Assembly: GCA_001769535.1 (NCBI GenBank)
Contig: MEOH01000003.1
Location: 1 to 51,715 of the forward strand
Direction: 5' to 3'
Length of the DNA: 51,715 bases
Source: Bacteroidetes bacterium GWF2_38_335
GTDB taxonomy: Bacteria; Bacteroidota; Bacteroidia; Bacteroidales; GWF2-38-335
Shown here: one piece after another, positions 25,225 through 51,641 of the stretch
How positions within the stretch are numbered: position 1 is the first letter of the stretch
Layout: every line of letters starts with the position of its first letter
Made by a program: the position numbers and the translations under genes
Notes under the pieces: model-generated
Databases searched by the model: none
What the model saw: only the letters and a program-made list of their open reading frames with translations
What the model was told of the DNA's origin: nothing

Positions 25225-25226
25225 GC

Positions 25227-25258
25227 ATATAACCCCGGCCTTCAGGCCGGGGTTATAT
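25227..25258. terminator. strong hairpin after citF
   Basis: Perfect 14-base stem (ATATAACCCCGGCC, 25227-25240, with 25245-25258) and a TTCA loop, 2 bases after the citF stop. It lacks a long T-run. Its core resembles two hairpins at 51241 and 51476 (CCCCGGCTTTCAAGCCGGGG type), so it may be a repeat that also serves as the citrate lyase terminator. Confidence 0.6.
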
Positions 25259-25421
25259 GAATATTATCAATACAAAAACCCAAACTTGGATTTTCGGGTC
25301 ATGCCCGATTTCTATTCCGTCAGAAACAATCCAAGAATCATTTGTTTCCCTGATTTGTTTTCTTGTATTGTTTTTTACCGCCGATTTCGAAAACCATATT
25401 GTTTATCTGAAAAAAATACTA

Positions 25422-25443
25422 TAATTCAAGGCCTACAGCCTTG
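25422..25443 (-). repeat. REP-like hairpin element, copy 1
   Basis: On the minus strand CAAGGC, loop TGTAG, GCCTTG, then AATTATAG. Six-base perfect stem. Confidence 0.65.
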
Positions 25444-25466
25444 ATGTTCCCGGTCGGCCTGCGGTC

Positions 25467-25493
25467 TACCGTAATTTAAGGCCTACAGCCTTT
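25467..25493 (-). repeat. REP-like hairpin element, copy 2
   Basis: On the minus strand AAGGC, loop TGTAG, GCCTT, then AAATTACGGTAG. It carries the full 3' tail. Confidence 0.7.
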
Positions 25494-25570
25494 TGGTGAC
25501 GGTGGATTAATATTTACCTGCGGGTTAAAATGAATAATTTTCAACCAGGCAATAAATTTGTCATATCGAC

Positions 25571-25604
25571 AATGAATTTGCTTGTTGGGCAATAATTTGG
25601 GTAG
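25571..25604 (+). repeat. REP-like hairpin element, copy 3 (degenerate)
   Basis: AATGAATTTGCTTGTTGGGC followed by AATAATTTGGGTAG. The stem and loop are altered but the overall layout and the GGTAG end are kept. Confidence 0.5.
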
Positions 25605-25610
25605 AAAAAC

Positions 25611-25645
25611 AATGAATTTGCCTGTATGGCAAAAATTACGTTGTA
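25611..25645 (+). repeat. REP-like hairpin element, copy 4
   Basis: AATGAA, then TTTGCC, loop TGTAT, GGCAAA, then AATTACGTTGTA. Six-base perfect stem. Confidence 0.6.
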
Positions 25646-25723
25646 AAAAAGCAATGAAATATTTTCAATCAGGCAATGAATTTTCATGTTAAATATGAAA
25701 AACTATATTTTTCTATATAGCAG

Positions 25724-25757
25724 AATGAATTTGCCTGTAGGGCAAGAATTACGGTAG
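25724..25757 (+). repeat. REP-like hairpin element, copy 5
   Basis: AATGAAT, then TTGCC, loop TGTAG, GGCAA, then GAATTACGGTAG. Stem and tail are intact. Confidence 0.7.
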
Positions 25758-25783
25758 AAAAAAACAATTATGTTTTTTTCAAA

Positions 25784-25810
25784 CATGCCTGTAGGGCATG
25801 AATTATTTAG
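25784..25810 (+). repeat. REP-like hairpin element, copy 6
   Basis: CATGCC, loop TGTAG, GGCATG, then AATTATTTAG. Six-base perfect stem; it is the copy nearest the transposase gene. Confidence 0.65.
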
Positions 25811-25914
25811 TCATTCCCTATTGTATTATTAATATTTTATAAAAAAATGAAAAAATATTTTTAGAAATAAATTTTTCTATTTATAATTGCATAAAATTAT
25901 GTAAATATAACATT

Positions 25915-26385
25915 ATGAAACCAGGAGTATATACGCAATTGTTTATTCAATTGGTTTTTGCAGTAAAAAACCGCAAGTGCCAGCTCGAAGAACCAATAAA
26001 AAATGATGTATTCAGATATATAAGCGGAATACTAACAGAAAAAAAACAAAAATCAATTATCGTAGGAGGTTGCAGAGACCATATCCATGTCTTTTTCGGA
26101 TTACATCATACAACATGTATTTCAGAAGTAGTAGAAGAAATAAAGAAAAGCAGCTCAATTTTTATTAACAGTAATTTCCGGTTAAACGAAAATTTTCATT
26201 GGCAAAACGGATATGGAGCTTTTTCATATAGTAAATCGCATGTTAAAAATGGTTATAATTATATTCTGAATCAAGAAGAACATCATAAGACAAAAACTTT
26301 TAAATCAGAATATATCAGTATGTTAGAAGAATATGAAATAAAATATGATAATAGGTTTTTGTTTGATTTTTTTGAAAATGATTAA
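25915..26385 (+). CDS. IS200-like Y1 (HUH) transposase, REP-associated type
   Basis: 156 residues, one whole Y1 transposase domain. The HUH motif is DHIHVFF (His56 and His58), and the catalytic tyrosine helix reads NYILNQEEHHK (Tyr116, Gln120), followed by the typical TFKSEYISMLEEYEIKYD ending. Such enzymes cut and rejoin single-stranded DNA next to small hairpins. There is no accessory TnpB and no obvious pair of IS200 ends. Instead six similar hairpins lie directly upstream, and more lie at 51 kb, which fits a RAYT, a single-copy transposase that mobilises REP elements. Catalytic residues look intact. Confidence 0.88.
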   Translation: MKPGVYTQLFIQLVFAVKNRKCQLEEPIKNDVFRYISGILTEKKQKSIIVGGCRDHIHVFFGLHHTTCISEVVEEIKKSSSIFINSNFRLNENFHWQNGYGAFSYSKSHVKNGYNYILNQEEHHKTKTFKSEYISMLEEYEIKYDNRFLFDFFEND

Positions 26386-50991: not shown

Positions 50992-51029
50992 TAGGTTTTT
51001 TAGTTATAAGTTACAAGTAGGAAAAGGGG

Positions 51030-51093
51030 AAAGTCCATCAAGTCGAAAGTCCATCAAGTCGAAAGTCTGTAAAGTTGAAAGTTCGTAAAGTTG
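51030..51093. repeat. 16-base tandem satellite (4 units)
   Basis: AAAGTCCATCAAGTCG twice exactly (51030-51045 and 51046-51061), then AAAGTCTGTAAAGTTG and AAAGTTCGTAAAGTTG. Further units of the same family occur at 51365-51395. Confidence 0.85.
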
Positions 51094-51106
51094 GGAGTTT
51101 GGAGTG

Positions 51107-51182
51107 GGAAGACCGAAGTCGGAAGCCGGAAGTCGGAAGTCGGAAGACCGAAGTCGGAAGACCGAAGTCGGAAGACGGAAGT
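51107..51182. repeat. 7-base degenerate satellite (about 11 units)
   Basis: Runs of GGAAGTC, GGAAGAC, CGAAGTC and GGAAGCC follow each other without break. It is a purine-rich microsatellite. Confidence 0.8.
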
Positions 51183-51215
51183 ATTGATCAACCCTTTAAA
51201 TCCAAAAAAGCAAAC

Positions 51216-51239
51216 GGCCTGTAAGGCCAGCTAAATTCA
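51216..51239 (+). repeat. REP-like hairpin element, copy 7
   Basis: GGCC, loop TGTAA, GGCC, then AGCTAAATTCAG. It matches the 25.4-25.8 kb family in layout, with an altered tail, and overlaps the start of composite repeat copy 1. Confidence 0.5.
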
Positions 51240-51368
51240 GCCCCGGCTTTCAAGCCGGGGTTTAATGATCAGATTAGATAAACCGCCGGCCAAAATGCCA
51301 TAAAAATCAAAAATAATATTCCGGCGGAAATAAATGATGAATTTAACAGAAGGTAAGATTATATAGTC
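51225..51368. repeat. composite repeat, copy 1
   Basis: 144 bases. Parts in order: GGCCAGCT(A)AATTCA; hairpin CCCCGGCTTTCAAGCCGGGG (51241-51260); CCGCCGG (51283-51289) able to pair with CCGGCGG (51321-51327); and AATTTAACAGAAGGTAAGAT (51340-51359) plus a short A/T tail. The same parts recur in copy 2. Confidence 0.8.
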
Positions 51369-51395
51369 CCATCAAGTCAAAAGTCCATCAAGTCG
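51365..51395. repeat. two further 16-base satellite units
   Basis: AGTCCCATCAAGTCA and AAAGTCCATCAAGTCG, the same family as the array at 51030, placed between the two composite repeats. Confidence 0.75.
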
Positions 51396-51459
51396 ATGAA
51401 GTTTTATCTTCCGCAACCCAGGCCTGACCACCTATGCTGAAGCTTTGGTGGTTAAAAAT

Positions 51460-51641
51460 GGCCAGCTCAATTCATCCCCGGCTTTCAAGTCGGGGTTATA
51501 ATTATAAGCCTGTAGGGCTTAAATTATGGTAGCCCCGGGCAATTGCCCAGGGGCCCGCCGGCCACAAACACATTAGAACAAAAAAAACCATTCCGGCGGA
51601 AATGAATGATAAAATTTAACAGAAGGTAAGATTATAAAGTC
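51460..51641. repeat. composite repeat, copy 2 (with embedded REP-like hairpin)
   Basis: 182 bases. Same parts as copy 1: GGCCAGCT(C)AATTCA, CCCCGGCTTTCAAGTCGGGG (51476-51495), CCGCCGG (51555-51561) pairing with CCGGCGG (51593-51599), and the AATTTAACAGAAGGTAAGAT block. It is about 37 bases longer in the middle, where a REP-like hairpin and a GC-rich hairpin (51533-51553, core GGGCAATTGCCC) occur. Confidence 0.8.
51501..51532 (+). repeat. REP-like hairpin element, copy 8
   Basis: AAGCC, loop TGTAG, GGCTT, then AAATTATGGTAG. Stem, loop and tail are intact, 25 kb away from the transposase gene. Confidence 0.7.

What the first reader, a model, noticed from the sequence alone, without database searches (positions are those of the whole stretch)
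25422..26385. REP/RAYT-like system: six covarying hairpins directly upstream of an intact HUH transposase
Six small elements share the layout stem-TGTAG-stem-AATTAyGGTAG. The stems differ (CAAGGC, AAGGC, TTTGCC, TTGCC, CATGCC) yet each stays fully base-paired, while loop and 3' tail are kept. Such compensatory change points to selection on the folded DNA or RNA. The adjacent single-domain Y1 transposase has both His of HUH and the YxxxQ tyrosine, and no TnpB or IS ends. In gammaproteobacteria, RAYTs act on REP hairpins that carry a GTAG tetranucleotide 5' of the hairpin; here a GGTAG lies 3' of it, on the same strand as the TGTAG loop. This may be a distinct Bacteroidota REP family with its own transposase.
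Basis: partly seen in the sequence, partly recalled or inferred. Interest (0 to 1): 0.85.

Follow-up and report, generated by a model that had tools for sequence, protein, structure and literature searches.

The report
Tagged DNA hairpins with a transposase
A small single-strand-DNA transposase gene, common in its bacterial phylum, sits beside short DNA hairpins of a strict, repeated design that are also scattered through the genome, which suggests a self-spreading or housekeeping hairpin system in a protein group that was recorded as having none.

Summary
The observation largely holds: hairpins with compensatory stem changes lie upstream of an intact HUH/Y1 gene, with more copies elsewhere in the genome. 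Only three of the six carry GTAG. The protein has the signature (DH[IV]H, WQ, Y---Q--HH) of 'subclass 1.2' of Quentin et al. 2018, whose table gives its REPs as 'no'. Hairpins with GNA triloops lie near 66 of 84 such genes (80 relatives, 4 own) and 49 of 75 further ones. Their commonest fixed-distance tag is GTAG (also GTAA, ATAG), 14 nt 3' of the loop, the opposite side from canonical REPs. Units read A (tagged) then B (untagged), about 52 nt apart, and mostly point at the gene. One closed relative also has gene-free A-B-B'-A' palindromes. In 198 genomes of the phylum, tagged elements were found in 56 of 94 with the gene and 16 of 104 without. Most likely mechanism (inferred): the transposase binds and nicks these hairpins in single-stranded DNA. 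Cleavage and mobility were not shown. Verdict: new variant of a known kind.

The parts
25915..26385 (+). Y1/HUH transposase gene, 156 aa, subclass 1.2 signature (DHIH, WQ, YILNQEEHH)
   Evidence: Pfam PF01797 72.3 bits; NCBIfam IS200 50.2, below its 55 cut-off; H56, H58, Y116, Q120 invariant in 67 aligned proteins; AF2 model pLDDT 90.1 matches IS608/ISDra2 TnpA
25416..25443 (-). hairpin E1, GTA loop, GTAT instead of GTAG; second (B) member of doublet E2-E1
25466..25493 (-). hairpin E2, GTA loop, GTAG 14 nt after the loop (A type)
25577..25604 (+). hairpin E3, decayed loop (GTT), GTAG kept at the fixed distance (A type, read by eye)
25617..25644 (+). hairpin E4, TGTAT, no GTAG (B type, read by eye)
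25730..25757 (+). hairpin E5, GTA loop, GTAG (A type)
25784..25811 (+). hairpin E6, GTA loop, no GTAG (B type), nearest the gene
51505..51532 (+). dispersed A-type copy of the same family, 25 kb away, inside a composite repeat
51216..51228 (+). GGCCT-GTA-AGGCC hairpin in the same composite cluster

Best explanation
This is a REP/RAYT-like system of the IS200-side Y1 subclass 1.2. Shown: most of the gene's relatives examined are flanked by short hairpins with GNA (or GNNA) loops. A-type hairpins carry a GTAG-like tag (GTAG, GTAA or ATAG) starting 14 nt 3' of the loop; B-type hairpins lack it. They follow an order A(n)-B, about 52 nt apart, mostly pointing at the gene from both sides, and copies with the same order are dispersed between genes. 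Inferred: the transposase recognises the folded hairpin on the GNA strand when DNA is single-stranded (as on the lagging strand), reads the tag at a fixed distance as guide or cleavage site (the hairpin-linker-tetranucleotide order resembles an IS608 right end, partly recalled), and nicks or rejoins there, copying or rearranging the miniature units. The gene itself looks domesticated: chromosomal, few and mostly divergent copies, hardly seen in the plasmid and phage collections.
For: Hairpins (stem >=5, >=4 G/C) occur at 5.2/kb and 5.3/kb within 400 nt 5' and 3' of 84 genes, against 1.2/kb (1.6/kb noncoding) more than 1 kb away. GNA loops: 253 of 402 triloop hairpins within 500 nt, 53 of 332 beyond 1 kb; in 75 further non-redundant loci 182 of 313 near, 21 of 71 far; 4 classical IS200 controls 0 of 7. 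GTAG at +14: 47 of 254 GNA hairpins (13: 3, 15: 6, 17: 5, otherwise one or none per position from +4 to +42); with any NTAR tag 81 of 253 at +14 against 5-26 at the other offsets from +8 to +25, and 6 of 53 in far hairpins. Separate GNNA set: 10 of 47 (+14) and 8 of 47 (+15). Further loci: 17 of 182, and 11 of 40 GNNA. 5' control window 6 of 253, 3' window 59 of 253. Order: GTAG in the first of 32 of 67 pairs, in the second of 8; more than 600 nt from tnp AB 32, AA 22, BA 3, BB 2. Pointing at the gene within 150 nt: 127 of 147 and 84 of 93. Own genome: 22 places, reversed-pattern control 0. 198 genomes: 56 of 94 gene+ and 16 of 104 gene- have R2 matches (Fisher 8e-11). Even 400 kb of closed G170: 14 A-type, 13 intergenic; 400 kb of gene-free G061: 0. 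Protein-stem correlation over 56 loci r=0.33, 0 of 2000 permutations. Plasmids 2 of 72,556 records, phages 0 of 50,697.
Against: 18 of 84 and 26 of 75 genes have no GNA triloop hairpin nearby; some of the 18 have GNNA-type loops (e.g. L051, L069, L091, L097), and others, e.g. Marinifilum L072, L075, L083, show no hairpin. 38 of 94 gene-positive genomes have no R2 match. Tagged elements persist in 16 gene-free genomes; 6 of the 8 of these that one search covered have no IS200-family match either. Three relatives with no PF01797 keep 14-18. In the 60 closer relatives the association is weak (>=5 matches in 19 of 39 against 5 of 21, Fisher p=0.10; Mann-Whitney p=0.024). R2 was built from elements beside such genes, so genomes that supplied them may sit in the gene-positive groups. 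In the further loci GTAG has a second, smaller peak at +23 (9). Near-gene hairpins without GNA also have GTAG in the 3' window in 22 of 266. The window copy has no GNA hairpin downstream of the gene. Two of the four own genes are 81% identical, so the gene can duplicate. No empty site, no polymorphic copy, no biochemistry. Loci and hairpins are not independent, so p-values are overstated; the IS200 control has only 4 loci. The plasmid and phage collections may hold few hosts of this phylum, and one protein was the query.
Confidence: 0.75

Rival explanations
1. An ordinary IS200-group insertion sequence: the hairpins are its left and right ends and the dispersed copies are remnants or miniature derivatives of that IS.
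For: Protein fold closest to IS608/ISDra2 TnpA (Z 13, against 9.3 for the REP transposase 4er8). A-B-gene-B'-A' in relatives and A-B-B'-A' without the gene in G170 look like an element and its miniature form. Two of the own genes, L002 and L003, are 81% identical and carry the same hairpins.
Against: Flanking hairpins are inverted around the gene (127 of 147 point at it), unlike same-strand LE/RE of IS200/IS605 (recalled). The window's gene is 32-37% identical to the other three, so it has no near-identical copy here. 2 of 72,556 plasmid records and 0 of 50,697 phage records. NCBIfam IS200 score 50.2, below 55, although many relatives do exceed that cut-off.
Confidence: 0.12
2. RNA elements: hairpins act in transcripts as mRNA stabilisers, terminators or translational regulators of neighbouring genes.
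For: REPs can be transcribed (PMC12306157, passages); stems covary; RNA folding is favourable.
Against: No Rfam match at the gathering score in the window. Tags and loops have a strict strand sense and lie inverted on both sides of the gene and in tandem arrays. The tail consensus (ATNWTTGTAR) is not a terminator's T-run. DNA and RNA energy models do not separate the strands clearly, which neither helps nor excludes.
Confidence: 0.08
3. Passive repeats spread by another enzyme (for example a class 2 RAYT or the host of a miniature transposon), next to this gene by chance or as insertion hot spots.
For: Tagged elements exist in genomes without the gene (16 of 104).
Against: Nine of those 16 are in one genus (g99) that has gene-positive species G082, G227, G243, which fits loss of the gene. 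Stem sequences follow the protein. Two hairpin families in the own genome sit with different genes.
Confidence: 0.05

Closest known systems
REP / RAYT (TnpA_REP) REPtrons of class 2 (PMC6006769, sections 12 and 18 and passages; PMC8266576, passages; PMC3733652, section 16 and passages)
   Same: HUH/Y1 single-domain protein, hairpins flanking the gene and dispersed between genes, a GTAG tetranucleotide, inverted pairs, low-copy gene, several matched hairpin families per genome
   Different: GTAG is 3' of the hairpin at +14 from the loop, not 0-2 nt 5' of it; loops are GNA/GNNA; ordered A(n)-B doublets; protein has Y---Q--HH (class 1) not YxxNP
TnpA_Y1 subclass 1.2 (Quentin et al. 2018, PMC6006769)
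   Same: Motifs DH[IV]H, WQ, Y---Q--HH, about 150 aa, few copies, Bacteroidetes among its hosts
   Different: Published table lists REP 'no'; here REP-like hairpins are found. Their automatic search required GT[AG]G 5' of the hairpin, which would miss a 3' tag
IS200/IS605 (IS608, ISDra2)
   Same: Fold (Z 13); hairpin followed by a linker and a tetranucleotide resembles the IS608 right end (partly recalled)
   Different: No tnpB next to it, hairpins inverted rather than on one strand, the window gene has no near-identical copy here, hardly seen on plasmids
TIRtrons / TIRYT (Di Nocera et al. 2013, PMC3733652)
   Same: Y1 gene between inverted repeats that also form dispersed families
   Different: Most of those TIRs are described as unrelated to GTAG repeats; here the inverted unit is made of GTAG-tagged hairpins
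REPINs (PMC3116915; only the start of the abstract in a search listing seen)
   Same: Inverted miniature units without a gene (A-B-B'-A')
   Different: Four hairpins in two doublets rather than two REPs (the latter recalled); seen as a full quadruplet at 4 places in one genome and in the other polarity at one place in a second

Membership tests
Canonical REP/RAYT (class 2 TnpA_REP) | HUH/Y1 single-domain protein | tested here: met
Canonical REP/RAYT (class 2 TnpA_REP) | class 2 tyrosine motif (YxxNP type) | tested here: not met
   YILNQEEHH; 75 of 81 proteins Y---Q--HH; motif table seen
Canonical REP/RAYT (class 2 TnpA_REP) | GT[AG]G 0-2 nt 5' of the hairpin | tested here: not met
   GTAG lies 3' at +14 from the loop; within 30 nt 5' no GTAG starts closer than -10 in the 253 near GNA hairpins. 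GTGG was not counted
Canonical REP/RAYT (class 2 TnpA_REP) | hairpins flank the gene and are dispersed in intergenic DNA | tested here: met
   own dispersed copies outside ORFs of >=120 aa 22 of 22 examined
Canonical REP/RAYT (class 2 TnpA_REP) | strand-specific ssDNA cleavage of the REP | not testable with these tools
   needs protein
TnpA_Y1 subclass 1.2 | DH[IV]H, WQ, Y---Q--HH, about 148 aa | tested here: met
   window protein; 75 of 81 with the Y motif, 78 of 79 with [DN]HxH; table seen
TnpA_Y1 subclass 1.2 | clade position in the published tree | not tested
   no tree built with the published sequences
TnpA_Y1 subclass 1.2 | no REP association (as published) | tested here: not met
   published 'no'. 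A negative record, not a defining trait of the protein
IS200/IS605 insertion sequence (subclass 1.1) | IS200 profile above curated cut-off | tested here: not met
   window protein 50.2 of 55 bits; many relatives pass, so a weak criterion
IS200/IS605 insertion sequence (subclass 1.1) | LE and RE hairpins on one strand | tested here: not met
   mostly inverted around the gene in relatives; no GNA hairpin downstream in the window
IS200/IS605 insertion sequence (subclass 1.1) | near-identical copies in the genome | tested here: not met
   4 genes; the window's is 32-37% identical to the others; L002 and L003 are 81% identical
TIRtron / TIRYT | gene between long terminal inverted repeats | tested here: inconclusive
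   A-B-gene-B'-A' in relatives, downstream half absent in the window

The most novel reading that the evidence does not exclude
A second, independent origin of REP/RAYT-like systems, from the IS200 side of the Y1 family: subclass 1.2 proteins with 3'-tagged GNA hairpins in ordered A(n)-B arrays and A-B-B'-A' miniature units, common in the window's phylum (gene in 94 of 198 sampled genomes; taken to be Bacteroidota from named relatives) and present in records labelled Planctomycetota, Verrucomicrobia, Calditrichota and others.
Probability: 0.45. Interest if true: 0.75.

Novelty: new variant of a known kind. Interest (0 to 1): 0.62.

Why it matters
REP/RAYT pairs are the best-known case of a domesticated bacterial transposase living with its hairpins, and why they persist is an open question. 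A second kind, with the tag on the other side of the hairpin and a two-hairpin order, in a widespread phylum and in a protein group recorded as lacking REPs, gives a natural comparison: what is shared (ssDNA hairpin, GTAG, low-copy chromosomal gene) is likely essential, what differs is not. It also names the element well enough to annotate many genes now called 'IS200/IS605 family transposase' together with their repeats, and makes a simple cleavage test possible.

Tried and rejected
Rfam gathering search of the window: no match. PDB sequence search: no convincing match; the only transposase was 2fyx at E 0.84; fold comparison was needed. A first AlphaFold model with 4 sequences was poor (pLDDT 57.7) and was replaced by one with 67. 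DNA against RNA folding energies of six hairpins and their complements differ by 0.1-0.3 kcal/mol (DNA) and 0.5-0.9 (RNA), so they do not decide strand or molecule; the DNA parameter set may not hold a GNA bonus. That GNA triloops are unusually stable in DNA is recalled; only the title of Yoshizawa et al. 1997 was seen, in another paper's reference list. A promoter reading (Bacteroidota TTTG / TAnnTTTG, recalled) was considered because of TTTG in the tail; positions +18 to +29 carry at most 0.59 bits, so no second box is seen. A 5' guide sequence as in IS608 was looked for: only A-richness 5' of the stem.

Rows dropped or limits: hairpins inside genes; L122 and L143 (tyrosine motif not found in the reading frame used) and 8 redundant loci from the validation set (89 loci, 81 non-redundant, 75 used, 4 controls). 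Of 48 candidate A elements, 33 entered R2: those not 29 nt long and some near-duplicates were left out. GTAG and GNA were selection criteria for these, so their invariance in A4 is by construction. In some searches the tag is NTAR at +14. 67 of the proteins at hand were aligned for A5. R1 and R2 counts are lower bounds: at most 150 of 1047 candidates, 124 per genome or 37 were scored; 7 of the 30 R1 matches are the copies it was built from. The relatives sample gives a much weaker association than the phylum sample. PF01797 was searched in 7 of the 21 gene-negative relatives (4 of 7 have a match). The five of 14 G048 matches that one search lists lie within 300 nt of a contig end (contig lengths for C7 and C12), so a gene lost in assembly is possible there.

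PMC11194056 (passages) reports a 'RayT' gene near abeS in Chryseobacterium; no 'palindrom' in its main text. PMC12306157 (passages) tabulates REP counts for three Bacteroidota and does not use the word transposase in its main text. Bertels et al. 2017 was not read (recalled, and through PMC6006769).

Full report
What is there. The gene at 25915-26385 encodes a 156-aa Y1 transposase with DHIH, WQ and YILNQEEHH. Its neighbours are ordinary metabolic genes. Upstream lie six short hairpins. With the copy at 51505, stem changes are compensatory: 95.2% of cells paired, 4 of 6 pairs changed on both sides, covariation 0.683 against 0.260 in shuffles. Four strict GNA-loop hairpins in 25400-25914 compare with a shuffle mean of 0.015. 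Only E2, E3 and E5 carry GTAG; E1 (GTAT), E4 and E6 do not. Read along their own strands the six form three doublets, tagged then untagged: E2-E1 and E5-E6 by script, E3-E4 by eye, as E3 is decayed.

Copies elsewhere in the genome. A covariance model of seven copies finds 30 matches at E<=1 on 12 contigs, the seven included (150 of 1047 candidates scored). The pattern GCCTGKAGGGCTTANATTATGGTAG with up to 3 mismatches has 22 places, among them E2 and the copy at 51505, and the reversed pattern none. Twenty aligned dispersed copies begin sharply at the hairpin and stay alike for about 80-85 nt beyond the tag, through further palindromes. Of the dispersed copies examined, 22 of 22 lie outside ORFs of 120 aa or more (the copies behind L007 and L023 not examined). 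The genome has four Y1 genes. The other three carry a second hairpin family, GCCCTGAAAGGGC, with 20 exact copies genome-wide, 9 of them beside those three genes, and none of the reversed pattern. Two of these three genes are 81% identical.

The rule in relatives. Eighty relatives were fetched by protein similarity alone (the best 80 of 469). With the four own genes, hairpins are about four times denser within 400 nt than beyond 1 kb. GNA loops make up 253 of 402 near and 53 of 332 far triloop hairpins, and 66 of 84 genes have at least one near. The most frequent 4-mer at a fixed distance is GTAG at exactly +14 after the loop, 47 of 254; the GNNA-loop hairpins, not used to find it, show it at +14 (10 of 47) or +15 (8 of 47). 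A rise at +43 to +53 is what a next unit 52 nt on would give. Counting any NTAR, +14 has 81 of 253, the other offsets from +8 to +25 have 5-26, and far hairpins 6 of 53. Common tag forms are TTGTAG, TTGTAA, TTATAG, TGGTAG. In 75 further non-redundant loci: 49 with GNA near, GNA in 182 of 313 near and 21 of 71 far, GTAG at +14 in 17 and GTAA in 20 of 182, a smaller GTAG peak at +23 (9), and 84 of 93 within 150 nt pointing at the gene; four classical IS200 genes have 0 of 7. In the first set 127 of 147 point at the gene. Thirty-three A elements from the discovery set covary (72 two-sided cells against 21.9 shuffled; the number of pairs changed and of pair types does not exceed shuffles).

Order and arrays. 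Neighbouring hairpins on one strand are most often 47-56 nt apart, with a smaller peak at 28. More than 600 nt from a tnp match the order is AB 32, AA 22, BA 3, BB 2 (40 of its 60 loci were fetched around R2 matches or genes, which favours finding A but not its place before B). Some genomes have tandem arrays of period about 52 (G056:C139, G035:C121). In the closed genome G170 four dispersed places have A-B-B'-A' with spacings about 52-40-52; one place in G132 has the other polarity. A tnp gene of G170 sits inside the same layout, A-B-gene-B'-A' (L232). In an even 400 kb sample of G170, 14 A elements were found, 13 intergenic, 6 of the 14 within 1.5 kb of a known tnp gene (4 of its 5 genes had listed places); in 400 kb of gene-free closed G061, none. 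No full quadruplet fell in the even sample.

Gene and element across genomes. In 198 genomes of the phylum sample, all at least 95% complete, the gene (E<=1e-15) is in 94 and R2 matches (E<=0.05) in 72; 56 of 94 against 16 of 104 (Fisher 8e-11). Nine of the 16 exceptions are in one genus that has gene-positive species. In 60 closer relatives the link is weaker, and three genomes with no PF01797 match keep 14-18 matches. This fits gene loss with relic hairpins or assembly gaps, but counts against strict dependence. Because R2 was built from elements beside such genes, some circularity is possible.

Protein. 75 of 81 proteins have Y---Q--HH. The model (pLDDT 90.1) is closest to IS608 and ISDra2 transposases (Z about 13) and less close to the REP transposase 4er8 (Z 9.3). 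Protein similarity and stem similarity correlate over 56 loci (r=0.33, 0 of 2000 permutations). The window protein finds 2 of 72,556 plasmid records and 0 of 50,697 phage records; the share of this phylum in those collections was not checked.

Comparison with what is known. Quentin et al. 2018 (PMC6006769; sections 12 and 18 and passages read) define subclass 1.2 by these motifs, say it is generally without typical IS ends and mark REP 'no'. Their automatic search asked for GT[AG]G 0-2 nt 5' of the hairpin. Canonical REPs are cleaved at CT 5' or 3' of the structure, with GTAG crucial or contributing by system (PMC8266576, passages). Di Nocera et al. 2013 (PMC3733652, section 16 and passages) describe REPtrons and TIRtrons. 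The present system shares the logic but differs in tag side, loop, unit order and protein class, so it works like a REP/RAYT without meeting two of its defining features.

How it probably works. The GNA strand folds when single-stranded; the Y1 enzyme (a dimer in its relatives, recalled) holds the hairpin and reads the tag at a fixed distance; it nicks with Y116 and can join ends, spreading or rearranging A(n)-B units. The anatomy is shown; binding, cutting and movement are inferred.

Noticed in passing
25226-25259: A perfect 15-bp stem (CATATAACCCCGGCC-TTCA-...) just after the stop codon of the upstream CitF-like ORF; its CCCCGGC...GCCGGGG core resembles hairpins in the dispersed composite repeats.
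   Followed up: no
51000-51600: Runs of short degenerate repeats (aagtccatcaagtcgaaagtc, gaagtcggaa) next to a mosaic of palindromes including the REP copy at 51505.
   Followed up: partly
L001, L002, L003: The other three Y1 genes of this genome are flanked by a different hairpin family (GCCCTGAAAGGGC; 20 exact copies genome-wide) alternating with larger palindromes such as CACAGGGCAACGCCCTGTG; in L001 much the same hairpin set occurs on both sides of the gene.
   Followed up: partly
L153 (G056:C139), L152 (G035:C121): Tandem arrays of the tagged hairpin with a period of about 52 nt, close to five helical turns; in L153 some are followed by an inverted untagged hairpin.
   Followed up: partly
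genus g99 (e.g. G069, G098, G114, G129): Several species without the gene keep 19-36 tagged-hairpin matches, while sister species have the gene: a ready case for studying relic repeats.
   Followed up: no
L072, L075, L083 (Marinifilum): Three such genes with no GNA hairpins nearby; either another hairpin form or a lost association.
   Followed up: no
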